64,000 nucleotides of DNA, taken from assembly GCA_037074765.1 (NCBI GenBank), contig JBAMDO010000231.1:21230-85229 (forward strand), in the 5' to 3' direction. The stretch comes from Mansonella perstans (Eukaryota > Nematoda > Chromadorea > Rhabditida > Onchocercidae). The notes beneath the pieces were generated by a model. That model did no database searches. It was not told where the DNA came from and saw only the letters and a program-made list of their open reading frames with translations. This document shows, one piece after another, positions 9,279-63,063 of the stretch. How positions within the stretch are numbered: the stretch's first letter is position 1; the number at the start of each line of letters is the position of its first letter. The translations under genes and the position numbers were made by a program.

Positions 9279-11215
9279 ATGAAATTGGATGTAAAAAAAA
9301 AGTTGGTGAAGAAGGCTACAAAATTGTTGAATACTGAAAATGCTATTGATGGTAGCATACGTTTTGAAAATATTCCCAGGTTATTTTCTCATATTTTTCT
9401 ATATTGAATAAGTTGGCGTTAGTTATTTTTCATTGGATAAGTTGATGGTAATTCTTCAAATCAAAATCAATTTTAAAAGCAGCTCGGCGAAGAAAAAGCC
9501 TACAGACATTAGTTACAACATCTTTTTTTTTGTCTTCTGAACGGTTGACAAATAGTTATCAAATATTGCTATTGTTTAATTTTAACAAAAAATTGCTTAA
9601 ATTAACTTCACTCAAAATTTTCTTTTTTAATAGTATTTTTGTTCTGTTCTCAATACAAAACCGTTGTTTTTGTTTTTTCCCTACTAGATTATTATTGTTT
9701 TATTTCGAAGGAAATTTGATGGAATATTTTTCTAATCATTAGCCATTTTCTTTTGGAATATAGTTTGTTTATCAATGAATTTTCAGTGAAAAAGTTCATT
9801 TTACATTTACTTGGGCTACGCATCTGAGTGACGAAGAATTTGAGTGGATTTTCAAGTTGTTCGAGACTAATATGCGCACAATGTATCAAATCTCTCAATG
9901 GGGTTACGATGAAGTGAGTAAAAAGCAAGAACTTCGAGCAACTACATCGAGGTATTTGTATGGAAGAGTCGTAACATAAGAATGTTTGTATTAGAGTAAA
10001 ATGAAAGAGATGAGTTTATTTTTTTGGTTAACTGAATTGTAAATATTAGTTGATAGAAATAATCATTCTACATGCGAATAATTACTTTTATCAGATAGAA
10101 CATATCTCATATTCTATGTGAATATGTTCTATCTCATATTCTATAAAAATAGTCTGATCGATTAGATTGTGGGAGAAAACTTATCAGATTTTTTTATTTT
10201 AGTTTATTATTCTTGACTTTATCATTTTGTATTGGTAAATAAGATCTTAGATGGAAATACTACTTACAGATATGTTATTGCGAAGAATCAGGACGGTAAA
10301 TCGATCGCTTATTTACATTATCGTTTTGTTATTGATTTCGATTCAGCTGTATTATATTGGTTAGTCAGTGTTTGCATATCACATACCATTTTAAAGTTAC
10401 AGTACTGCTTTTATTTTTCCAAAAATTGAATTTGTTAGTTTTTTGCTTTTATTTATGCTGAAACTTTTTGCTGCGTCCAGTATCTTTTCATTTCAGTTAT
10501 GAGATACAAGTTGAAAGCAAATATCAAGTTAAAAATATTGGATCGGCTCTTTTGTCCATTATCGAATGTCTTGGGAAAAAGTAATTACCATTATGTTGCT
10601 TAATTTTTTTTTTATTTTTTGGATGGTAGGAAATGGATCAAAAGGAAGCTCTGTAAGGCTTCAGTAAGTAGTCGATAATTGGCTATCTTATGCCATATTT
10701 AAAATTTTTTTTTTCGGGAATTTCGGAGAAATTAATAAAATCAAATTTATGTTAACTTGTAATAGATTCTGTTGCATGCAGTTCCTGAAATAGTAATTCT
10801 CAGGATGCTCTCAATTCTTATACAAATGACAATATTTAGATGGCACATACTGTTCGTGGTAAGTGGGAGTAGCTCTTCTCAGTAGTATTAAAAACAAGGC
10901 ATTGGACACTACATGACTTGCCTGATTTTATTTTCAGTTACTTTTTATCGCCCTACCTCATTCTGTGTTGATGAACTAGCACCAACTTTAACTTGGACCA
11001 TTATTAAATTTTAATTTTATAATAATAAATTTTTGATAAGCTAATTATTTCAAATTCTGAATAGTTTCAGAATGTCAATGGATAAATTAATGGCTACAGT
11101 GTTTGCATTTAATGGGAATTCACTTGCATTTTTCCACAAGAATGGATTTAGTGCTGATCCATCATGTCCAGACAATGGTGATTATTTGATTTTATCAAAG
11201 CCGTTATCTGATTAA
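9279..11215 (+). CDS. NAA40: N-alpha-acetyltransferase 40 (NatD), histone H2A/H4 N-terminal acetyltransferase
   Basis: Five exons, 9279-9379, 9787-9951, 10270-10359, 10497-10580 and 11071-11215, join in phase to give 194 aa ending at TAA 11213-11215. The family match is clear. NMRTMYQISQWG corresponds to human NMQTMYEQSEWG, and TSRYVIAK to the DRAWYLIA block. AYLHYRF and VLYCYEIQVESK are the GNAT core strands, and NGDYLILSK is the terminal block. NAA40 acetylates the N-terminal Ser of histones H4 and H2A using acetyl-CoA. The acetyl-CoA loop reads QVKNIG (residues 129-134), with Asn where the canonical R/Q-x-x-G-x-G/A motif has its first Gly. The protein is shorter than human (237 aa), mainly through a short N-terminus and lack of the His/Cys-rich tail. 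The ATG lies one base after TTTCCAG, so trans-splicing there would give an almost leaderless coding start. An upstream exon cannot be excluded. Confidence 0.92.
10098..10143. repeat. Short intronic direct/inverted repeat
   Basis: ATCTCATATTCTAT occurs twice about 27 bp apart, with GAACATA and TATGTTC forming an inverted pair around the middle. It lies inside NAA40 intron 2. Confidence 0.6.
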
Positions 11216-12798: not shown

Positions 12799-15700
12799 TC
12801 ACCGTTTCCTGCCTGGAGCAAAAAGGTACTGGAATTGCGGTGGTACGGTAGGAATTAAATGGTCTGGTATAGTGTAGTTCCTGATGAATTTTACAAGCTA
12901 AAAAATTGTTTGAATTATTTAATATGAACGAATAAAGTAGAAAAAAATATCTTTGACATATTTAAGAGAAAATTGCACTGGTTTTTAAATTGATATTTCT
13001 TTAAAAGTTTTTCTGTTTTTATTTCCATTTTTGATTATAATAAGTATTCCCAAAAAAAAAAAAAAAATTTTCATTATTTCAGAAATTTTTTAAAAATTGC
13101 TCTTTTTTTGTATTTTTTTAAATGGATTGTTTTATTTAATCAATTTTAAAGTGCAAATCTTTCAAGGCTATAATACCTGTTCTTTGATAACATCCAATGC
13201 ACCGCCTGTATTTGCCCATCGTTGTAACCGCTGTAAATTATCCAGACCAATTGTTCGATCAATGTGGCCTAGCAATTTAGCTTGACTATCTAATTTTTCG
13301 CTGCCTAATGCAACCTAAAAATTTAGGAACTGTTAAAATAATTATTTGGAATATGTATATATATAAAGAAACTGTAGTATTTTACTACACTACAGAAAGC
13401 ATCGTCGGTATACGATAGTAGACGGAATACTATATTCCTAACAATATCGTGTACTATCAGTGACTGTATTACTGTAATATTTGGTGTTCTACATGATAAT
13501 CGGCGGCATATTGTATTAATTGGTAATAAAATAATTCATTAATAATTGTATTTATTACTGATATCATCAAGAGTATCATTACCGGCATAATTGATTTATA
13601 ATATTTATCTCTCTTGCTTACAGTGTAAGCATAAAAAGAAGGAAAAATAAGGCAACAATTATTCTGTAAAAAAAAAAATAAAATGCAGAAGTAAATAAGA
13701 TCCTATTGGTAACGATTTAATTAAGGTGATAACTAAACTACTTTCATGAATTTTCGAGAAAAAATATGCAAATACAAGATTTACTTCTAAAATATCGATT
13801 GCAGCAGATTCAATTGGCGTACCCTGCTCGAAATGATTGATCGCTTGATTGAAGCCAATATCTGCTCTAGTTAGGAAATTCAATAACGCTGATGGTTTAA
13901 TCTGGAAAAGTTTAAAAAAAACAAATGTGCTTTTGAATTCCGAATTTTGAATTTAAGCAATCAAAGTTTTGAACATTTAAATTAAAGGCTAGGAAAATAA
14001 AAATTTAAAAAGAGGAATGACAAATGTACAGTTCTAGTAATTAATGTGATAAAAATGCAAGAAAATGAGTATTTTTTCCGTTTAAGATTGTCGCTTTTTT
14101 TAATTTAAATTTTTTTGCATAAGAAAATTTGTTGACAACAAATGAACCTTTGTTTGAGTTCAATTAATTTCTTTTTTAAATTTCAAACGACAGAGAGAAT
14201 GAATGAAAAAGGTCAACGTTAACTTCATAAATAATGCATGAAAAAGAATGTCATCAAATTAATTTGAAAAAAAGAAAAGTGACAAATTTTATGATAACTG
14301 TGCAATCATGTCATATCTGAATTCCTTACTTCATCGTAAAATTGTTTTGAAAATTTCGCAATATATTTTAAAAATTTAGAATACCTTAGATTACTTAGAT
14401 TACCTGGAAGAAACTTAGATTACCTGGAGGAAACTTAGATTTGATGGAGGAAAAAAGATTTTTTATCATTGCTTATCATTGTTTGCATCACTCATGTTGT
14501 AGCGGAAATAACTATACTGATATTTATAATTAAATTTTAAAAAAAGCAAAAAAAATAACGGACCGTGGTAGGCGGATTTTGTGTTCTAATATGGCGATCT
14601 GATGAGGTGGGTAAGATGCCGGCTACAGCACCACCAATTCCAACTGCTGGTACCGGTGGCGGGATAGCTGCACCAGATATAATTGGTGGACCGAGACCAT
14701 CACCGGTTGGACCAATTCGATTTGGTGTTAATGCCGATTCACCCGTGAATATTGATTCTTTCAGTTCATTATCTTAATAACATATCATTACACAAAATAT
14801 ATCCAACATGTGCAACAAATTATTTACAAATACAATTCATCAATTAATTCATTGAAATTTTAAAATGCAACTACAATTTGTTCTTTGCTTTTTTTGAATG
14901 AATTTTTATTTTTAAATTTTTCAAAACTAAGCTGATCTTTAAAATCAAAAAAATTACCAAAATTTCCGGGTTCCGGTTGTAATTCATGAAATGGATTGTT
15001 TAATATCGGTCTTCCTTTCCCTGTTCCAAAATCACCATCAAAATCTGAAGGTGGTGATGCAGGAATCAATCCAGAATTTTGCAATTTCGTTTCTGGCAGT
15101 GATTTTTCTACAAGTTCTGATGAAGATGACGAGATCAATGCTGTTGTTTCACTGGAACTAGCAATTTTTTCCGTTGTCATTTCTGTTGTTTCAACATTGC
15201 TGAAATTTTAATAATTTTTCATTTTTGCAAAAACTACGAAAACACTAAAGAGCATTAATGTTTTGAAAATTTCAATAAGATCTTTTGAAGTCGCCGTCTG
15301 AAAACTTTTTGTTGAAATTATGATGAATATTCGATATTTCCAATATTTATGAGTAAAAATTTCAGAAAAAAATGTGATTCTTAGATTGCTATCAAAATTA
15401 CTGTAAATAGAACACTTTATATAGCTAGCAAAAGAAGAAATAAATCACTCGTTAGGATTGTCATCTGTCGCTGGCTTCTGATCGTTGTTATCAAGAACGC
15501 CTATACCATCAGTCATACTAAAATCAACTGGTGGTTTTTTACCATCACCAAGTGCCGTTAAATCAAAATCGTCAATCGGAAGCTTGTCATTGCCAAACTG
15601 TGCATCATTTTCTTCAATTTTATTATTTTTTGATGTGATCTCTGCCGATTTACCTGAATTATCAAAACCGGTTGATGATGCATTAAAACTGTTCCAACTC

Positions 15701-15827
15701 ACTCGATGTATCCATCATTATTAACTATGGCATCAATCGAATCACTTGAAAAATCTATCGTGAAAAAAAAGATAAAAATAATTAAAAATTTTTGGAAAGG
15801 CACTTTCAAAACAACTCACAACTCATA

Positions 15828-15886
<59 letters not shown>

Positions 15887-18800
15887 CACACATACACGTA
15901 TTGCAAATTTAATTTTTTTGTTCTGATACAATTTGAAAAGTTTAAAGGACGGAGTTTTTTTTTTAAAATTTTTTCCCAACTATTTCATGTTTTTCCATCT
16001 TTTAAATGATATTATCCTTATTCTTCTAATCTATATATCATCATATCTTATTATCTTATCACATTGGTTATTTTCATTCACTTTACATTGGACAAACAGT
16101 ATTTGTTTACTTTTTCATTTTCTTTTTACAAATTAAATACGATTATTGGTGGCATTTAATGCTGGAAACATAAAATAAATAGATGAAAATAGGTTAATCT
16201 TTCATAAAGATTTAGTACAAAATTTTTCATAATTTATTGTTTCTCCTTCCGTATTCTCTCTCTCTCTCTTTCTCTCTCCTGTTGTCTCTCCCTTATCAAT
16301 TTTATTACTTAATCCTTTGACCTCTTTTCGTGCTTTCTTTAAATTTATTTTATTAGTAATAATTTCAATTTATTTGATAATAGAAATTCTCAATTCAATA
16401 ATATCATAAATTACAATTTAATCGGTTCGATTAATTTCAATTAATTGTTATTTTGTAAGGATTTTTAACAAAGATTTAAATGAGAAAGAGAAAGAGAGAG
16501 AGAGAGAGAGAGAGTAGATAATAATATTTATAATTTTACAAAGATTTACCATTTGCTTCATTGTGTAAAAATACTTGTTCAATTTCACTTTCCAAATTTA
16601 ATGGTTCGAGTTGAGGCAAAGAAATTGGACTTCGTCCGAATGCTGTTTGATTGCCTCTTAAAAGTCCTTTCTCATCTTAAAAGATTGAAGAATGAAAATT
16701 AAGCAATTAAAATTGATCATTTCATTTGATGACACATACACATACCCACATATTTTTATTTAATAAATTTTTATTAAATCCTTTAATTTCAATTTCCATT
16801 GAATTTTATTGCAAAATTTAAAAATACCAAAAAATTTTTTTAATTAAAATTGAATTTTTGAAAGTTTTTTTCAATCAAAAATTGAAAAATTATAAATTTA
16901 AAAACGATAAGTTACAATATCATTGAATGTGAAAGGCCTGATTAAAAATTGTGGGGCGAAAATGAAAGCGCACTTGGCTTCCGTATTTTAAGCCGTGGTT
17001 GTCGTCGAAATTTCTGAGCAAATTTAAATTTCTTTATCGGTGTAATTTTCCGAAAGTGATAATCGTTTGCTTCTGTGCTGAACGAAAATAATTTTGGTTC
17101 AATGGTTGTTACATTATCAAAATCCATGAATTTTGAATTGAACGAAGATGAGGATGAAGAAGCGGTAGCAGTAGTGACGGTTGTTTCATTCATAACAGTT
17201 GCTGTAGTAGCATTAAAAGCGGTTTCAATGATTGTTGATTTTGGTGTAACTTCGGTAACAAAATCGGTAACAGGCACCGTAGTTGCATTAATTGCAATAG
17301 TTGATGCTGTGGTAGTTGTTGGTTCTACTATTTCCCTTGGCCATTCATCCACTAAAAATTACCATTTTTTATATATTCAAAATGATTTAGTGTGAAATAA
17401 TAATAAAACAGTTTACTGAAATAATAATAATAAAACAATGCCTCTGGAATCATTAAAATATTTAATAAAAAATTTTAGTAAAAGTTGAAAATTTTCAAGT
17501 TTCTTACGAAATTTCGAAAGTATAAAAAGTTATCAGGTTAATTAGAAAAAAATTGCTTTTCAGATCAATTAAATTTGAACTTTTCAAAAAAAAACAATTT
17601 ACTCCTCTCCCCCCCGCAAAGAATCAATTAATTTAATAGAAATTTAATTCTCAGCTTGATTTGAAATGATGATGACAATCAATATGGTTGACCTTAATTT
17701 AACCAAGACAAATGTCGTATAAATGACACAAAATTTTAATTACTTTTCATTTTCCAAACTAATTCTGACATTCGGAATTCTCAGCGTAGTTCTTTGATTG
17801 GATCAAAATAAATTTATGAGAGATTTAAGGAATTTCAAGAATTGACAAAAGTAATTGGACAAAATTTTCAGACAATGCGCACAGTTTTCTTTTGTTTTAC
17901 ATCAAATAATTATTGATCTCTCCAACTAGTTAACTAATTAATTAATCAGTCAGTTTTACTAATTGGGAAAAAATGGAAGAAGTAAAAGTGGTATACACGC
18001 GAAAAAATTCACATTACTCCATTTTATCAATTCTCGCATCAAATATTTCTTTTTTCTTTTATGGTAAAACTAATTTCAAAAAGAAAAAAAGGAAGCAAAA
18101 AAAAGTGAAAAAAAGAAGGAAACCTTTATTGTTGAGTAACTTTGACTTTACTTCAGCATTTGAAAGTAATATTCCACCAATACGTGGGCGTTTTTCGACT
18201 CTTTCACTATTTGTTTGTTTCATGTGTTTTTGTAGCTTTTTCATAATCTTTTGCATTCGATTTGAAAAATGTGATGGACCGTTGTCACCTTTTGCTAAAA
18301 CAACACGCTGCCAATTTCGTCGCCTGTACGGATACTGTATCGTTTTCACCATTGGACCTAGCTTACGCCATCTAACCTGTATATATGGATTAAATTGGAA
18401 CTGAAATTGGAATTCGATTATTATTACTATTACTGCTTCTTGTCTATTATTATTATTGTTATAATTATTACTACTCTATTACTGTTATTGTTATTGTTAT
18501 TAATGAGAGTATTGCCAATGTCATCAGTATTATTTTCAATATTGTTGTTGCTGTTATTATACTATTATTAATATTATTGCTATTACTGTATTATTATTAT
18601 TGTTACAATTATATTATAATTACAATTATTATTGTTATTATTGCCGACACTTGAAAGCGAAACAAACAGTGCAATTATTGTTGAGATTGATTTAAAAAAT
18701 TAGTATTTATATCGTCTAATTATTGAATTTATTTATTATAAATGAAAAAATGAAATGAGCCAATATATTATAATTGATCACTGGAATGTTAAAAAAAGCT

Positions 18801-21770
18801 ACTGATTTTCTATTTTTAAAAACCAATTTTTTTCTTTTTTTTTCAAAATTTTCTTTGAAATTTTCTTACCTCTGTTCTTGATTCTTTTGCTTCATCAATT
18901 GTAGTTGTTGGCGATACACGACTTAATAAAACTGGCTGTATTATTGAAGGAGTTACTGTTATTGCTGTTTCCATTATCGTTACAGTTGTTGTTGCTCTTG
19001 TTGTTGTTAATGTTGTTGTTGTTGTTGTTGTTGTTTTTTCTGTTGTTGTTTCTCGTAATTTTGGTTTTACACTTATTGGCTTCTCTTCCTTTTCGTTGCT
19101 ATAAAAACTTTGCAAAAATGGCGAGATTGCTTTCGATAACGCATAATTGATTTCCTGAAAAAAAAATAATCCGTTTAGAAAAAAAAAATGAAAAATTGAA
19201 ATCTGTTATATTCATTATGACGGTGTTATAATACATTGTTACCGTATTATATTATGATATCTGATACGCCTTTGTTACCGTACTATCTTTTAGAAACACC
19301 TAAGAAACGTTTTTTTTTTTTTTTTTTTTTTTTTTCAGCATTATCGCCGATTAGAGAAACAGAATAATTTAACAGAAATAATGGAGTATAATAGTAACGA
19401 AATGCAGGAATGGAATAGCAATAGAATTCAGAAATAAAATACTAGTAGAATAATAAAATACAGGAATAGAACGGTATAAAATAATGGAATGCAGAAATAT
19501 AGTGATAACAAATACATGAATAGAATGATAATAAAATAACGGAGTTAGAGAATATGATAAGATCGAAGAAGGGCATAATAGGCAAGGATATAAGAACGAT
19601 TAATAGTAAGATAATAATGACAGTACTGTAAAATTGAATATTAAATACAGAAAAAGTAATATAAATACAGAAAATATTAATGGAATGTAGATAAAGTGAA
19701 TTTATGATTTTTTAAATTCCTTCAAGTCATCTTTTTATTTTTTCAATTTTCATTTCATTTTTTTTTTTTTTATTTTTCAGCCAAACAGAAAAAATGCTAA
19801 CATTTCTGGGGTAAGAAGCGAATCCTTTTGATCGCGAAGGATAAACTTCGTCTACCGTATTCTGTAACTGTGATTGTTCTTGTGGTTGCTCCAATTTTGC
19901 AATGTTCATTATTCGTGATGATTGTTTCCTGATAATAATCAATGAAAATCACTGAAGTCACAATAAATACAAACAAATAATTTTCGTTGTGATTTCAAAA
20001 CTTATACGAATTCATCTTTTATATTAATTACTTTCTTGGTACTAATTATTGTATTAATTAGCATTAATTACTTTTATAATTACTTAAAGAAAATTTGTCT
20101 TCAATATCAATTGCAGAAAATTCAGCTTTTACATTAATTACTTACATTTGTGGATCAAATGTATTTGTTGCTGATGACTTGAATGGTCGCAACCTTTTAA
20201 TATTATTCAAAAGAAAACGACTTGGACGAGAACGATAATCGAAGTTTGAGATGTATTCAGTTTGCTGAAAATTATATGACTATGAAGATTATATGACTAT
20301 GAAAATCATATGACTATGAAAATTATATAACTATAAAAATTATATGAAATTGTATGATCGCTGTAATGATCATGATTAGTATGTTGTGATTAAGTGAGAT
20401 TAAATTGTATTAAAGTAAATAATATGTGAATTTCGTGATATTTATATGCTGTAATATACGTTAATAAATCGTCAAACTAATTTTTTATAAATTAATTAAA
20501 TTTTTGATAAATGTCTTTAAAAATTTTTCAGTCTTATACTGATAATAATAATAATAATAATAATAATCATTTTTACTCCATTAATTCACAATCTTTAATT
20601 AATCATCTTCGTTTTTTTCAATTTTGTTTAGGTAAATTATTGTGATTTATATCGCGGGGTTGATTAATTAATAACTTGATTAATTAATTAATCCTGCATT
20701 TTTTCAAAAATTTATTAACCATGCTTGTTCATAAATATTTTCTTTTGATAAATGTACAAAATAATAAAGGACGCTTATTGGATGTGTCTGAATTAATTAC
20801 TGAACGGCAAGGTTTTTCGGATAGATTTTTTCTTACTTCCAAACTAAAACTTAAATTCAAGTACCAGATCAAAACTACTTTAGGCACTAGATGAAATGCT
20901 TCACATATTAGATAAAGCAGCAAAAAGATATGCTTGCAATAAATATATTTTAAAAATCAGATAGGACTACAAACACATTTCATTATTAAATCCTGCAACT
21001 AATTAATTGAAATTACAGTAAATACAATGAGTATTTCTTTTTCTCCATTTGTCCACTTTTCCATTCTATTATTATTGATAATCAATTTAATTAAGTAATT
21101 GGTTGAAATTACTTCAATTATTCATTAAATCAATGAAAAGTTTTGAAGGTTATTCAACATGAAAACAAATCAAGAAAAAAAATTCATTGTTGTGAGTTCT
21201 TTGAAAAATTTTTTTCCGAAAAATATTAGCAGATGGGTCGAAAAAAAGACAAGAAGTGAAAAAGAAATGAAAAAAGAAGGATAAAAAATCATCAGCTGGA
21301 GAAAATTACTTTTTTAAATTTAAAGAGAAAGAAATGAGAGCAAAATAACGGAAAAACAAAAATGGAGGAGTGGATGGGATGATGGTACATTATCTTCGAA
21401 TGATAACTGATAATCGCTGTTTGATTATCTTAGAATGGCAATTGATAATTGTTGGTTTATCATTTCAAAATTTGAAATAGTTTATAAATTTTAAACTTGA
21501 ATTAAGAAGCAACATTCATCTCTAACATTTATTGGATAAATTTGAGCAATCAATGAATTTTTTCCCAGTAAATTTTTTTCTCAAGGATAATTTTAATTAT
21601 GGCATGATGTAGCATATTGTTTTATGCTATCATCAAGCCTATCAACTTAATTTAATATCATTAGGACTTCCATACCGATGTAGTATTATTTTCAAGATCC
21701 ATCCTAATTTGTCAACAACGGCGCATTTGCCAGTCATATGTGAGTGTGTATGTGTGTGTGTGAATGTGTG

Positions 21771-21849
<79 letters not shown>

Positions 21850-24800
21850 ATATGTTATCATTAAACACTTTGATATGCTATCACCGGTTTTGAACGGATT
21901 TGTGAAATTTAGCCTATTTATTAAATTTTAAAATTTTAATTTATTTCCGAAGTTTGTTTACAAACTATATTAATTACACATTAAGTAATTACATTTATTT
22001 AATCTAATCTTTCGCTTTCTAAATTATGTCAAATAAAAAGTCTTGAAAAAACTAAATTAAATTTAACGGAATAATAATGTTTTGTTATCATCTTATTGAT
22101 TTATTTTCTAATGTTGTGATAACTTATCTCAAACAGTTATTTTTAAGCCACTTCTGCAAGATTATAAAGTAATTTGTAAATGGAAAATCATACAGATATA
22201 AATCAATTTTCAGAAGCACAATGTTAACGAAATTGATAATAATAAAGATAAAAAAATTGAAAATTTAATATTTAATTTCAAAAAGTAATTTATTACTTTT
22301 TTTGCCTTTATTTTTAGTGTAAATACACTTTGAATAAAAATTAATCACCTATTGGTGCGACAATAGAAACCATTTGAAAATTATTTCGTCCAAACTTTAC
22401 CTAGTTCAAAAGTTCCGAAACATTATCATCTACTCCTAATCGTGATTTTCTTCTGTACGCTGGGAAGAAAATTACAACTTACTATGAAACTGATAAGAGA
22501 TGAGTCATAAGTAATGTAAACAAGTTATTATAGCCTTTCAATACTTTATTCTAAATTAATGTATCCTTTATACATGTATGTTAATTCCAGTTTGAAATTT
22601 AACCAGACAAAAATTATTTCCTAAAAAAATTGAGATCAGCCAAAGAAGTAAACAAATATTTATTTTAGAAAAGATCCTATGATATAAATGAATAAATTAT
22701 TTGGTCTGTTTGTTAAATTTTGAATGTGTCTGATTAAATAAACAAAAACATTGTCGCATTGTCAAATATCATTTTTTTAAATTTATTTCTTCCATTTTAC
22801 TTCATCCTTGAAAATCACTTCACTCATTAAAAAGCTTGTAGTTATGCTTAACTTGTTAATTATCTTTTCGATATTATATTGATTGTAAAGGAATTTAAAT
22901 AAATGAATTGGTATAATTATTTGTTAATTTTATCATTCTTTTATTGTGGCTTTCTTAAAATGTGACAATGTAAAAGATCAAGGCAATACATTATTTGATT
23001 ATATGATAACAGTTGGTGGGATGAATTAGTAATCTTAGGCAACGCTCTCAAACTGACAGATTATAATATCCGGTACAAGAAACTAGTTTTACCGGAAAAC
23101 AAATCAGATGAAAGAAAACCGGTTCACTCAACTATTTCAAATTTGAAGTGATAATTTCACTGCATCCTTATGCGGCAAAGAGGAAGAATACGATTTTTGC
23201 AGTGAAATCAATCTAAATGAGAAAAATTTTTTTCCGTCAAAACAGAAGAACAAAACTAATCGAAACCAATTAAAATAGTAAAAGTTTAATTATTTCAAAT
23301 ACTTAAATCCTTTATATAACTGTAATTTAAATTACATTAGAAAATTTAAAAAAAAAGAACGAAATACTTTTCGTTCTTGCCTTAGCACGAAATTATTTCT
23401 TTATTTACCTAACAAATTAAATATTATTATTAATCGATAGTTTTATACACTGAATAATGTGCGACAATTATAGTAACCACTTAAACTTTTCATTTTTTAA
23501 AATCACGTGTATCACATACTTTACATTTTGAAACGGCATACGCCATTTATCTCGTTACAATATTAGAGATAATGAATAACTGCATTATTTCTTTTTCTGA
23601 TAACTATTGTTTTTTTTCTGTTTGTCATTGTTATAGATAATTTTCATTAAAATCATTACCATTCTTCACTTATCGCTATCATTACTAATATTATTACCAT
23701 CGTTGTTTTTATTATTATTATTCTTACTACCATCAATATTATTGTTTTATAATTACGTTGTCAAATATAAATAGTGATAATAATGACGTTAATAATAAAA
23801 ATCTCAATCGCATGATCATTTTAAATTATTATTTAATAGGAGTTTCGGAACATAATGGAATTCGAATACAAAGATAGAAATTAACACTATCTTGTTAATG
23901 CACTTTTTAATTTTTAATTTTCATTTGACTTTTATTTATTTTTATTTTATATGCTTCATTCGGAACAGTTTTTGCAAATTCTAGATTTTATTCGATTACT
24001 GATTTAATTAATTATTCCTTCGATTGATCTATTTAATTGTCTCTTTCCAGTGCAATTAATTAAATCAATAAATTAAAAAAAACTTCAGTAAAAAGTGACG
24101 GATTTTTTTCTGAACTATAATAGAAAAATTTTTAATCAATGTTATTATTCATTTATATTATCACTATTATTATTGTATAATAATAAGAAATTGCAAACCA
24201 CTATTAATCACGCTTTTTTGCAAATCAATAAATTTTGGTATTAATTTCTTAATTATTAAATTTGTGGTAAAACAGTAATTATATCTATAATTTTTAAATC
24301 AAATAATTATTTAAGGCAATATCGAAAATAATAATAACTACGCCACTTCGAATAATTGCATAAAATCGCTTTCATAAAATTTTTTCCTTAAAAAAACCAG
24401 TTTTAAAGTCGAATTTAAATAATTTCACGAATTTCAACAAAACAAGACGTGAGAACAGGAAAAAAATGTTTTTTTCATAGTATTAGGCAAAATTATTGAT
24501 AAAAAATTTTATAATAAGCCTTTTAAATTACAATTACCTTTATAGTTATTATTAATTAATTATTTTTTTACAGCAATACATATGGACTTAAAATATTTTC
24601 AACCATTTCAATTATTCACACAAGTTTTGTTGTTTTCAATTCTTTTGATTACTTGTCTTAAAGTTAATCAAATCTCATTGTTTGACAATTTTACATTTCA
24701 ATGTGAATCTTCTTTGATTTTGAAACAAACTGAAAGTAAAGCTTGAAATTTTCAATTAATTGTTTTCTCACTTAATTTCACTAATGTTATAATTAAATAA

Positions 24801-53989: not shown

Positions 53990-55682
53990 TCAATAAAGTC
54001 GCTGGGGTGGCCCCATTGTGCTTTTTATGTGTAGCGACCTAACATTTTGCCAATTCTTCTTTAACATCGACACAAGAAAATTGATGGAAAGCGCAATATT
54101 TGAAACGAGCTCGTCCGTGGTCATTCCAACATGCCCAATTGCAACCGACAGACATAATACCTGCAATTAAAATCATGCTCTAATAAATGTCAGAAATAGC
54201 AATCATCAGTGCTTGAGACAGACTTAAGTCATCATCTGAATAAGGAAAGTACTCACCTTTTTCATTTGAAATTTGATCGTTGAACGAATCTCCTCAATTT
54301 TGGCTACTAGCGCTTCAGAATGAGCAACGACACTTGGAAATTTACCAGCTTTATTTAAACCTGGACCAAGTATACGTGGAATTTGTTTGATCAAGGCTTC
54401 CGAAGCCAAGAATGCATCATATCCCTAAAAATGTGGAAATATTACATCTTTTTTCCAGTATTAATTGCTGATCGGTGATAATGACACAGATCTTTTTTTT
54501 AAATAGACAATGAGCAAAGTATATTAGTCCTACAAATTGAACATTTAATCAATAACACATATGTGACCAAAAGAGAGTAATGACAAAGAAGTGAATGGAA
54601 CCTTTGCCAGCTTTTTAATAAGCTTCTTGTTTTTATTCAATTTCTTCAATTCATCTGCATTCATGCAAGGTATATTGTTTGCATTAGCTTCATCGCAATG
54701 TTGCTGATCACCCAGCACACACACTTTCATATTTGGTCTTGGAATATTTTTCAACCTAAATTATAAATGTTAAGAGGAAACAAATTTCTCGAAATGAAAG
54801 GAAATATATAAGAAATTCCAATTTAAACTCCTCCGTCCTCAAATTATTTGAGACTTTGACGTAATCTAAAATTTACCCAATTAAAAGGATTACAAAAACA
54901 TTGCACCACTAAAAATCGGGCATACCAACTGAGACAGAGAGATGGAAAAGGAGTTTTTCCACGGACTCGAATTACAATTAAGTGAATTTATCGAAATCAA
55001 TCAAATCGGACATGCATGAATAATCGTCTTAAAATATGGAGGGCGTAAAATATGACCAGGAAATTCGTCAAAAAATGTTCATATCCTACCTTGCTGTATC
55101 CCATCTTCTTCTTATTTTATCCAACTTAAATGAATTTCTATTTCATTCCATGGTATTAAGTTCTCATTCCAATCTACTCTATCCTACTTATTCACCACTA
55201 TTGGAGCCATAAATGAAATTTTTGTTTTAACGCAGATTACTATGATCATTCTCCATTATCAATTCGTAATTCCTTTATTTCTCAGTTGATAACAAAAAGC
55301 GTTAACGCTTACTGTTTTGGCTATTCGTTAACATAATTAGATCGGATTTCAAACAACGAAAAAGTGCGTGAAATCCTTCCCATTATTTCAAGACTCTGGG
55401 TTAAAGTCTTCGCCGTTTATTTTAAACGACTTCCTGCTCATTTGTATCAGTATTTAGATATGATTGGAAGAGTAGGCATGATGTAGAAAAGAATTGATGC
55501 CGAATTGATGGCTGTTGATAATACCTTACGGATCCACTGAAACGCTTATCTTTCTGCGGATCATAATTCTTCAGCGCTATTTGCAATTCGACTGTTTCAC
55601 GAAACTTCCGCTTCTTTTCTTTCGATGCTTTCAACACCTCATTGACACATTCGATTAGCGTATCACGTGGAATCTTACTCAT
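53990..55682 (-). CDS. rpl-10a: 60S ribosomal protein L10a (uL1)
   Basis: Four exons, 55682-55525, 54755-54602, 54424-54257 and 54160-53990, join in phase to give 216 aa, the normal family length. It starts MSKIPRDTL and contains [53 protein letters not shown] and STIKFQMKK. It ends [15 protein letters not shown] then [11 protein letters not shown]10a is the uL1 protein of the L1 stalk that guides exiting tRNA. The exon-1 donor is GTATTA at 55524, not the nearer GTAAGG, because only this gives SVRLKN in frame. The exon-2 donor GTTCCA is weak but phase-correct. An in-frame ATG 15 bases upstream exists, but MSKIP is the family start. TTTTCCAG at 55718-55716, 33 nt upstream of the ATG, is the likely trans-splice acceptor. 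Minus-strand AATAAA at 53788-53783. Confidence 0.97.
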
Positions 55683-56067
55683 TTTGCAGTATTTCACGCC
55701 CTACTGAATAACACCCTGGAAAATTAACATGAATTATATTGTTAATCATACTCAGAACACTCTCACATCAAACACTTTGATTATCATGTACGGAGGATGT
55801 TATCATCGGTACATGCCATACAAATTAGAATCCTAAAGCACGTAAAAAAAAATTCCTAAATTAAATTCAATATTTTTTGAAAATTACCAATCAGTGGAAA
55901 ATTTCGTAAAAAAACTCATAAAAGAATACATGTATAGCGATGCATCTGAATGAAATGTATCCTAAACACGTACTATATAAGTGATGTGAGTGTATCCATC
56001 ACTTATATCACACACACACAAACACAGAAACACACTAAACAGAATGAAAAACTTGCAGTCACCAGTC

Positions 56068-59423: not shown

Positions 59424-62400
59424 TTAAATTTGCTTCTTACAACAAATAAGGAAAATTCCTTGTGAACAGTAATAAATGCTTGATTGCTCATCATCAACTA
59501 GGAGGTTCACGTCACGTAATGCTTCAAATAATAAATTTTCGGTAACATATAAACATGAAAATTTATGTCCGCCAAATGAGCACCATGTTTCTTCCAATAC
59601 ACCACCCATTACAAACCAACCTGAAAAAGATTATTCATTTTAGTTGATAAATGATTGATTGTTCTCAGTCTCAGTCCTTCGCTTGTGTAATATATAGGAC
59701 AATTTTAGAATTTTCTTTGCCTTAAATTTCTATGTAATTTCACATTAAATTATTTAATTAATTACTTGAACCTTACATTACACTTATTCGTCCAATGGAC
59801 AGTAATTTTTTCTAATATAAAACACAGAAAATGATATTTTGTTCAATATTAAATTAATTAATCAGTTGTTCACGCGTCACATTCACTCAATTTGTCTGTA
59901 AGCAATACTTTTTTCTAATTAAAATAGATAAAATTTCAAAATTTTCTTTACCAAAAACTTTTGTAGAATTTCATTTTAAATATAATTGATTTACAGAGAA
60001 TAAAATATCTTTTCTCAATAATTTCTGAGAGGAAAAAATGAACGAAATTTACCCCCCGGCTTCACTTGATCCACAACATTTCGTATCGCTTCCTTATATT
60101 CCAACACACTACTACAACAGTATTCCAGGCAGAGAATAGTTACAACTACCTAAAATATTGGAATTCAATAGCAAAAAAAGTTTAGGAAAGTTTCATTTTA
60201 TTTAACAAAAGTTTTAATTAAGTCAAAAATTTTTGCTAATTCAAATGCTAATAAAGAAAATAAATATTTATCTCGAATATCATTTAAATCATTCATACCA
60301 TTTTAGTAGCTGAAATCAAGACATTATCATTAATTTAGTGTGAAATGAATAAAGAACTTCAGTATTAATTTAGTCTTCACTTACATCGAAATTATTTTGG
60401 ACATTTTTGGGAGCATCTATTGATGGCTTCTTACGGCAATCACAATAAATAATTGAACGAATCTGCAAAAAAATTAAAGTGAGTCCTAAAATTATATACA
60501 TAGCAATAATTTCATAAAATTAACAATGCTCCATATTAATTAGTTGCTAATTAATATTTGTAAGTTGTTAATCAATATTTATTAATTTATAAATATTTTT
60601 TCCCTTACTTTTTTTCTTTTACAATTTACAGACGAAATTTCTCAAAATTTAATTTATACTATTTGAAATTATAACCTTCGATTTAGCGCATTGCTCCATC
60701 TCTTTAAGTTGCAACCAACCGGAACCTTCTACCGTCGCAATCATTTTGATGGCCGGAGTCCAGTCAAATGAACTTTGACCGGTAGTCCAAAGAGATAATT
60801 CATTTCGATTTTGTGGCAAATAATCAGCTAAATATATCTGGAACATACTTTAGTGAAAGAATCTTTCATCAAAATGAACTAAGCACAACAAAAACGCAGT
60901 CTGTCATGCCCAAAATAAGCCAAAAAAATAGATTCTGCTTTGCATACAAAATGAACTAGGCATATAAACATATTTATAGTCTATTGATTCTATCAAACAT
61001 TTCATTCCGTTCTTTATAGATTTCCTGCGCATAAAAATTTGAAATTTGAAATTTTTTAGAACTGCTTTTTTTCTGGAAATTTCGTGCTAATTATGCATAT
61101 ATGAAGATTTCTTTGTGCTTTATAAAAATCAACAAATATGAAACAAAAATTCGAATAATTTCATAAAAAATTTAAAATTCTCTTATTTCGTTTTTGCTGA
61201 ATTTCAAGTTATTTCATAAAGAATTCAAAATTTCAACAATTCATTCAGTTTAAATTACCACTTACCAATCATTTCAGATTAAATTACACGTAGATTAAAT
61301 TACACGATGTTCGTCAAATTTTATAAACGTTTCTTAGCTGTTTTCTCTTCCAACAATTTCACAAATGTTTCATTCCAAAAATTGTTAAAATTTTAGAAAT
61401 TTATTTGCTAAGTTGTTCAAAAATAAAAATGCACGCATTAAATTTTTTTTTAATAATTTTTTAAACAAAATGTTTGGATTTCAAAAAATTTTGTTGTAAG
61501 AATTTGAGGATAAAATTGATGAATGATTAATTGCTTTATTGAATCTCTCTTAAAAAAACTTGCCATCTTTTCTACAAACATCGATTTATTTTATTTTTTT
61601 TTCGTTTCAAAATTTTTTTTAAATATCGATTTATGCGGATTTTTTTTTTGTTTTCATTTTTTTTTTTAGAAAAATTTTTTTTTTTTTGAACTTTATATTT
61701 CATTTAAAGTCTAGAATGTTCAACATCTGGAAGTTAAGCTTTAAAATTTTTGTCTGATAAATATTAAAGGAACAAAACAAATGAAAAAAATTTTCATTGC
61801 TTCCATTTGTCATAGCAAATATTGCACCTGCGTAAAACTTCAAATTTCGTTAAAATTTATCTGGAATGTACAGAAAAAGTAAGTTTGAGTCACACTGCCT
61901 GTTATTATCATAAGTTATTGATTTGTGAAACTCTGAATCATATTTTGTATTCTAAAATTTTTTTTGTCATCGATTAATTTAATTTCAAAAATTGTTTAAA
62001 AACATTATTTCAAAAAGAAATGAAAAATAAACGTCAGTAATATAATGTTGATGATATTTTAAAAAACGAAAAAATATTGTTTTGAAATTTTAATTCTTTT
62101 TCTCATTATTTATTTAAAGAAATTGAAAAATGAAATAAAATTTCTCGCACTCTTCTTTCTGTACATGAAATTTGCTCGTTTAATTTACTTCATTAAGAAA
62201 AATTCTTGATATTAATTCATCGCATCAGGAAAATATCCGGGTAAAAGAGAGAAAGAAGAAAAAGAAATTGTTCCGGTTTGTATGATCTCACTTACATTGT
62301 TTACTTTATTCCTGAAAACAACTGACACATGTATGGTTGGTCCAGCACCGAAATCCAACAGATTTTCCGAGTAATCGATACGTTGTGCAATTGTCGGTAA

Positions 62401-63063
62401 TAACATAATCATCATTTGCATTGCTGGATCATCAATACGTTGATAGAAATCCTAAATTTAATAATTTCATAAGTTCAATTTAATTTAATATTCCAAAAAA
62501 ATTTAATTTAATATTTGCAAAAAATATTTATTGTAAAATAAAAATTTTGTGGGAAAATAAAATTTCCCGCCATTTAATTACTTTGAAATAAGGCAATCTT
62601 TTATATTCTATTCTAAATTTTTCGTTTATTCTAATTATTTTTCTATATAATTTACTTGTCAGTTCTGCAGACAACATAAAATCATTTTTACCTTATGTCC
62701 TTATTTCATTATTTAATTATTGCTCATTAAAATTATAATGGGTATTCATGAAATATATTCATGACACTGTATTAAGTGACTATGCGTTAAATTTTGATTG
62801 CCTTGGAATTTTGTATTCCAATCCTGATTAATTCCAATTTTTGTTTCATTTTATTATTTCAATTAGTCAAGTCTCTAGTCCTCATTTTATTAATTTAATT
62901 AGTCAAGTTTCTAGTTCTGTTGACACAAAGACATCATGCAAATTTATCCACGAAAATCTCGTTATGTATGTGGAAGAATATGAACCCAAAGATAGGCCTG
63001 AGAATCGAAATTATTTTCCAAACCATCTGGTCCAATAATTACATCAGCTTCATTTGGCATCAT
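59424..63063 (-). CDS. Nicotinamide N-methyltransferase-like SAM methyltransferase (NNMT/PNMT/INMT family)
   Basis: Six exons, 63063-62986, 62451-62296, 60837-60676, 60462-60385, 60149-60053 and 59620-59424, all agree in phase and give 255 aa (human NNMT 264). LLDFGAGPTIH (57-67) is the SAM-binding motif I, matching LIDIGSGPTIY of NNMT. ADYLPQNRNELSLW and FDWTPAI match the TDYSDQN and FDWSP blocks. VVVTILCLEYC and the VKPGGWFVMGGVLEETW stretch match the later strand and loop, followed by KFSCL and YCSQGIFLICCKK. The family transfers methyl from SAM to nicotinamide or small amines. Nematode members produce 1-methylnicotinamide in vivo, while the substrate here is inferred. The ATG lies 5 nt after TTTTTTCAG (CAG at 63071-63069), a strong candidate spliced-leader acceptor. 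ATG ATG is doubled at the start. Confidence 0.9.

What the first reader, a model, noticed from the sequence alone, without database searches (positions are those of the whole stretch)
12799..14772. Large secreted protein with an unrecognised compact C-terminal region
A signal peptide, long Thr/Ser-rich and acidic low-complexity regions, and then about 117 residues with clear amphipathic-helix patterning and no low complexity. The final three exons carry phrases such as RADIGFNQAINHF, EVALGSEKLDSQAKLLGH and RTIGLDNLQRLQRWANTGGA that look under strong constraint, yet I cannot place them in a family. This is the best candidate here for an undescribed extracellular protein family.
Basis: partly seen in the sequence, partly recalled or inferred. 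Interest (0 to 1): 0.75.

Follow-up and report, generated by a model that had tools for sequence, protein, structure and literature searches.

The report
Undescribed conserved nematode secreted-protein tail
A filarial worm gene makes a predicted secreted protein whose tail is nearly unchanged across many parasitic and free-living roundworms yet matches no named domain or solved structure, so it looks like an unstudied roundworm protein family, possibly part of the body surface.

Summary
The finding is real. A minus-strand gene (23819 to 12799) encodes a predicted secreted, cysteine-free protein of roughly 800 aa. Most of the body varies fast; the conserved tail lies in the last four exons (14772-12799). 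Of 98 homologues found, 77 align over at least 105 of the last 117 residues at 66-89% identity. All 80 with a source name are nematodes, from filariae to Caenorhabditis and Plectus. Over residues 1-640 mean identity is 6-37%. The tail has no credible Pfam, NCBIfam or PDB match, and the DUF148 (SXP/RAL-2) name on seven records is not supported. AlphaFold gives helices but no trustworthy fold (pLDDT about 50). One copy was found in this genome. A database name points to C. elegans T19A5.3 as orthologue; one paper in the library names it, on splicing. Best guess: an apical extracellular-matrix protein with a conserved C-terminal interaction module. Location and function are inferred. The sequences are already public as hypothetical proteins; I found no description of the family.

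The parts
23757..23819 (-). Putative exon 1: MIMRLRFLLLTSLLSLFIFDN, signal-peptide-like, followed by GTAATT donor in phase
   Evidence: Read by hand; translation and donor checked; hydrophobic 12-mer score 2.55. Not confirmed by a homologue or transcript.
20146..20264 (-). Exon 2: mature N-terminus with NIKRLRP block (GIRRL-type block in 36 of 51 long homologues)
   Evidence: Splice sites and frame; block count
19802..19928 (-). Exon 3
   Evidence: Splice sites and frame
18870..19154 (-). Exon 4: Thr-rich low complexity (36% S+T)
   Evidence: composition
18124..18400 (-). Exon 5: basic region with RWRKLG block (RWxKLG type in 41 of 51)
16974..17351 (-). Exon 6: Thr/Ser-rich region then PRLKIRKP block (37 of 51)
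   Evidence: The donor (gtgcgc) was chosen by frame and by match to Brugia.
16550..16675 (-). Exon 7
   Evidence: Splice sites and frame
15703..15754 (-). 52-base open segment, possibly an optional exon; if spliced to 15653 it gives a stop at once; matching residues are in Brugia, Wuchereria and Dirofilaria models and lacking in Litomosoides and Acanthocheilonema models
   Evidence: unresolved
15449..15653 (-). Exon 8 of the 13-exon reading, acidic (the open frame reaches up to 15688 or further without an acceptor)
   Evidence: In-frame join to exon 7 shown
14958..15199 (-). Exon 9: Ser/Thr-rich, then NSGLIPASPPSDFDGDFGTG block (43 of 51)
14564..14772 (-). Exon 10: conserved linker FTGESALTPNRIGPTGDGLGPP...IPPPVPAVGIGG (FTG block 47 of 51, GPxGDGxGP 47 of 51)
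13785..13901 (-). Exon 11: IKPSALLNFLTRADIGFNQAINHFEQGTPIESAAIDILE
13177..13314 (-). Exon 12: VALGSEKLDSQAKLLGHIDRTIGLDNLQRLQRWANTGGALDVIKEQ
12799..12897 (-). Exon 13: LVKFIRNYTIPDHLIPTVPPQFQYLFAPGRKR and stop
   Evidence: end matches Brugia P0027

Best explanation
The gene is the filarial member of an uncharacterised protein family found across chromadorean nematodes (C. elegans T19A5.3, by a database name). Shown by sequence: a strongly conserved stretch of about 185 aa, a Gly/Pro linker followed by a helix-rich, cysteine-free tail, on a fast-evolving body rich in Thr/Ser, Gly or acidic residues, with no clear membrane segment after the N-terminus. Inferred: the signal peptide sends it out of epithelial cells; the disordered and probably O-glycosylated body is a flexible, hydrated spacer in an apical extracellular matrix (cuticle or precuticle); the nearly invariant tail binds a fixed partner and so anchors or assembles the protein there.
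For: Conservation gradient. 77 of 98 homologues align over at least 105 of 117 residues at 66-89% identity; 29 columns invariant among 39 sequences and 23 among 81 by the tool's count. Signal-like hydrophobic start in the window and in 27 of 51 long homologues; several of the other 24 models start at what is the mature part here (by eye). No 19-residue stretch of the window protein after exon 1 reaches the membrane cut-off of 1.6 (top 1.53, in the Pro/Gly linker); 3 of 51 homologues pass it, two near the start and one in a model that runs into an intron (reading mine). No cysteine in the window protein, and none after residue 40 in 44 of 53 homologues over 550 aa. Shared by free-living and parasitic species, which fits a basic role of the nematode body (inference).
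Against: No expression, localisation or mutant data seen. 24 of 51 long homologue models show no signal-like start. Both AlphaFold models have pLDDT near 50, so a compact fold is not shown. Many nematode cuticle proteins are collagens or cysteine-rich (recalled), unlike this. The one paper found does not mention cuticle in its text.
Confidence: 0.42

Rival explanations
1. A secreted epidermal regulator of the mucin-like OSM-8 kind: it acts through a membrane protein or in the lysosome lumen rather than as a matrix part, and the tail is the active portion.
For: General build is alike: signal sequence, Thr/Ser-rich body. OSM-8 is made in the hypodermis, carries an N-terminal signal sequence and co-localises with lysosome markers (passages of PMC12248090).
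Against: The OSM-8 C-terminus, read by hand from a primer in that paper, shows no likeness to this tail. No other OSM-8 sequence was compared.
Confidence: 0.2
2. The tail is a diverged SXP/RAL-2 (DUF148, ANIS5 cation-binding) domain, so the protein belongs to a known nematode family.
For: Seven of 98 records carry that name: P0007, P0043, P0056, P0067, P0070, P0072, P0074; P0070 and P0072 come from one gene. Both are helical (tail: low-confidence models; DUF148: recalled).
Against: No DUF148 match in 10 proteins at E <= 10, five of the seven among them, nor in any of 81 members at E <= 1. The same Pfam model finds two matches over its cut-off elsewhere in this genome. Foldseek on the weak model did not list one.
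Confidence: 0.07
3. The tail exons belong to a separate short gene and the long protein is a false join.
For: Some records hold the tail alone, for example P0013 (120 aa).
Against: Long predicted proteins from many species hold upstream blocks and tail together; the window's junctions agree in frame.
Confidence: 0.03

Closest known systems
C. elegans T19A5.3 (uncharacterised) and orthologues such as Brugia malayi Bm5827
   Same: Homologues over the tail and the upstream blocks: Bm5827 89% over 94% of the last 201 residues. The T19A5.3 link rests on the name of an Aphelenchus record, P0053.
   Different: Nothing on function found; the C. elegans sequence itself was not read here.
C. elegans OSM-8 (mucin-like secreted protein)
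   Same: Signal sequence and Thr/Ser-rich body (and recall).
   Different: C-terminus differs as far as a primer in PMC12248090 shows.
SXP/RAL-2 family (PF02520, DUF148)
   Same: Helical nematode protein; shared automatic names on seven records.
   Different: No profile match in 81 members.
Low-complexity nematode cuticle and precuticle proteins (for example the cysteine-cradle family, seen in a search listing only: PMC11925461)
   Same: Secreted, nematode-restricted, low-complexity stretches beside a small conserved part (inference).
   Different: The present tail has no cysteines in the window.

Membership tests
T19A5.3/Bm5827 homologue group | Tail of about 117 aa with KPSAL, L[DE]SQ and QRxxNT | tested here: met
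T19A5.3/Bm5827 homologue group | Upstream blocks RWxKLG, PRLxIRxP, NSGL...PPxxF, FTG[ED]SA, GPxGDGxGP | tested here: met
   All present in the window protein
T19A5.3/Bm5827 homologue group | Direct match to the C. elegans T19A5.3 sequence | not tested
   Only the name on P0053; no C. elegans record was shown
SXP/RAL-2 (PF02520) | Match to the Pfam model | tested here: not met
   the model works on this genome
SXP/RAL-2 (PF02520) | Same fold | tested here: inconclusive
   Models too weak (pLDDT 52 and 50)
OSM-8 | OSM-8-like C-terminus | tested here: not met
   By eye against a primer-encoded stretch in PMC12248090; rest of OSM-8 not compared
Apical extracellular matrix protein | Signal peptide and no other membrane segment | tested here: inconclusive
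   Hydropathy only: window met; 27 of 51 long homologues have such a start
Apical extracellular matrix protein | Epidermal expression and location in cuticle or precuticle | not testable with these tools
   No expression data at hand; the one paper found does not report it (passages)

The most novel reading that the evidence does not exclude
The tail is the founding case of an undescribed extracellular domain confined to chromadorean nematodes: cysteine-free, nearly invariant, perhaps ordered only when bound, docking a rapidly evolving glycosylated body onto an unknown but strictly conserved matrix partner. In addition, a frame-ending optional exon upstream could switch between a full protein and one without the tail.
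Probability: 0.4. Interest if true: 0.62.

Novelty: new member of a known kind. Interest (0 to 1): 0.46.

Why it matters
A tail kept at 66-89% identity across chromadorean nematodes, in a protein whose body has diverged almost beyond alignment, implies a strict conserved interaction that no named domain captures. A C. elegans orthologue would make it directly testable. If it is a cuticle or precuticle protein, it adds an unstudied part of the surface that parasitic and model nematodes share.

Tried and rejected
OSM-8 was my first guess from memory; its C-terminus, read by hand from a primer in PMC12248090 (passages), does not match. The 2011 OSM-8 paper is not held.

DUF148 (SXP/RAL-2) was weighed because seven records carry the name; profile scans gave no support, while the same model works on this genome.

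Structure: two AlphaFold jobs (120 aa with 39 sequences; 181 aa with 81 sequences) gave pLDDT 52 and 50. One Foldseek run on the first gave 36 matches with E <= 10 and none with E <= 0.001; nothing is concluded from it.

Bacterial/archaeal and viral collections: 20 and 15 pattern matches, none confirmed. A search from the Plectus protein at E <= 1 returned 69 of 308 candidates, the query among them and no protein that was not already found. No Enoplea or non-nematode name appeared among named hits, but the search needs shared 5-residue words and limits length, so distant relatives could be missed.

Papers: seven searches, seen as listings. Only passages of PMC2265522 and PMC12248090 were read. 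Supplements could not be searched.

Full report
What is there. Walking upstream by frame and splice site gives 14772-14564, 15199-14958, 15653-15449, 16675-16550, 17351-16974, 18400-18124, 19154-18870, 19928-19802 and 20264-20146, and a signal-peptide-like exon at 23819-23757. The window lies in a 75.7 Mb assembly of 539 contigs; that it is filarial is my inference from the nearest hits (Elaeophora, Brugia, Acanthocheilonema).

One place is unresolved. A 52-base segment, 15754-15703, has a splice-site-like border on each side. Skipped, exon 7 joins 15653 in frame; included, that join gives a stop at once. Read straight on, it changes frame before 15688. Brugia, Wuchereria and Dirofilaria models have matching residues; Litomosoides and Acanthocheilonema models lack them. 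In C. elegans, T19A5.3 has a cassette exon that is not a multiple of three, confirmed by RT-PCR, that differs between embryo and L1 and in sym-2 mutant embryos (passages of PMC2265522). Whether the two exons correspond was not tested; an assembly fault is also possible.

Homologues. The last 187 aa found 26 proteins. The last 201 of a 625-aa query, which admits longer proteins, found 72: 98 in all. Eighty carry a source name with an organism, all nematodes by genus (my knowledge); 18 carry none. None shows a precomputed Pfam domain. Of 98, 77 align over at least 105 of the 117 residues, at 66-89% identity (median 72); the other 21 align over less and are left out of that range. By the tool's count 29 columns are invariant in 39 sequences and 23 in 81. 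A search from the Plectus protein added nothing new.

Shape of the conservation. Against 51 homologues of at least 600 aa that contain PSAL, mean identity to the window per 40 residues is 0.06-0.37 for residues 1-640, then 0.65, 0.54, 0.82 and 0.71 to residue 800, and 0.43 for the last 23. Gaps count as differences, so incomplete models lower the N-terminal figures. The conserved stretch thus begins in exon 10, with FTGESALTPNRIGPTGDGLGPP and IPPPVPAVGIGG. Upstream blocks recur: RWxKLG in 41 of 51, PRLxIRxP in 37, NSGL...PPxxF in 43; a run of four Thr is found in 40 and of four Gly in 35. Some database models stop just past the window's exon ends (ILE|V in P0017 and P0098, PPTT|V in P0021, KEQ|V in P0001), which fits shared intron positions.

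Known families. Pfam at E <= 10 gives nothing for the window's tail. Among 81 members at E <= 1, 17 families appear, each in one to four members; the best is a Gly-rich family at 0.0012, under its cut-off. NCBIfam gives one match, 0.18, among five proteins. PDB by sequence gives none for the tail and one at E 8.4 with the profile. DUF148 names on seven records find no support. In this genome P0013 matches three exons, all of this gene; counts there are lower bounds.

Fold. Both AlphaFold models put helices at the same places, but with pLDDT 52 and 50. I draw no fold from this. The amphipathic pattern is only slightly above shuffles (89 of 2000). Low confidence despite many invariant positions fits a new fold with too little diversity in the alignment, or a segment that orders only when bound.

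Secretion. The window's exon 1 is hydrophobic, and no later 19-residue stretch reaches the membrane cut-off (top 1.53 against 1.6). Of 51 long homologues 27 have a hydrophobic start; 24 do not, several of them models that begin at the mature part. Location is therefore predicted, not shown.

Mechanism. A secretion signal, a fast-changing Thr/Ser-rich body and an almost fixed tail suggest a spacer-and-anchor protein. Since free-living and parasitic species share it, a basic nematode role is likelier than a host-directed one. Apical matrix is my best guess (0.42); a regulatory secreted protein like OSM-8 is the main rival (0.2). All of this paragraph is inference.

Print. 'T19A5.3' occurs in one paper of the library. 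Bm5827, LOAG_12505, ANCCEY_10911, Tcan_05334 and DICVIV_02272 occur in none. Supplements and most subscription journals were out of reach. The T19A5.3 link rests on one record's name (P0053).

Verdict.

Noticed in passing
15754-15653 (-): Possible optional 52-base exon that would end the frame before the conserved tail; C. elegans T19A5.3 has a regulated cassette exon that is not a multiple of three.
   Followed up: partly
62212-62451 (-): Piece of an NNMT/PNMT/TEMT-type methyltransferase (Pfam PF01234, E 8.2e-9).
   Followed up: partly
55422-55700 (-): Start of a ribosomal protein L1-family gene (PF00687, E 1.4e-4, under its cut-off); looks like RPL10A from memory.
   Followed up: partly
about 9300-11215 (+): Exons that look by eye like an N-acetyltransferase of the NAA40 kind (recalled); a 43-aa piece gave no Pfam match.
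   Followed up: partly
homologue records P0007, P0043, P0056, P0067, P0070, P0072, P0074: Database names DUF148 or SXP/RAL-2 on members of this family that profile scans do not support; a likely misnaming in public records.
   Followed up: yes
15834-15879 and 21777-21844: Long CA/GT dinucleotide runs inside introns of this gene.
   Followed up: no
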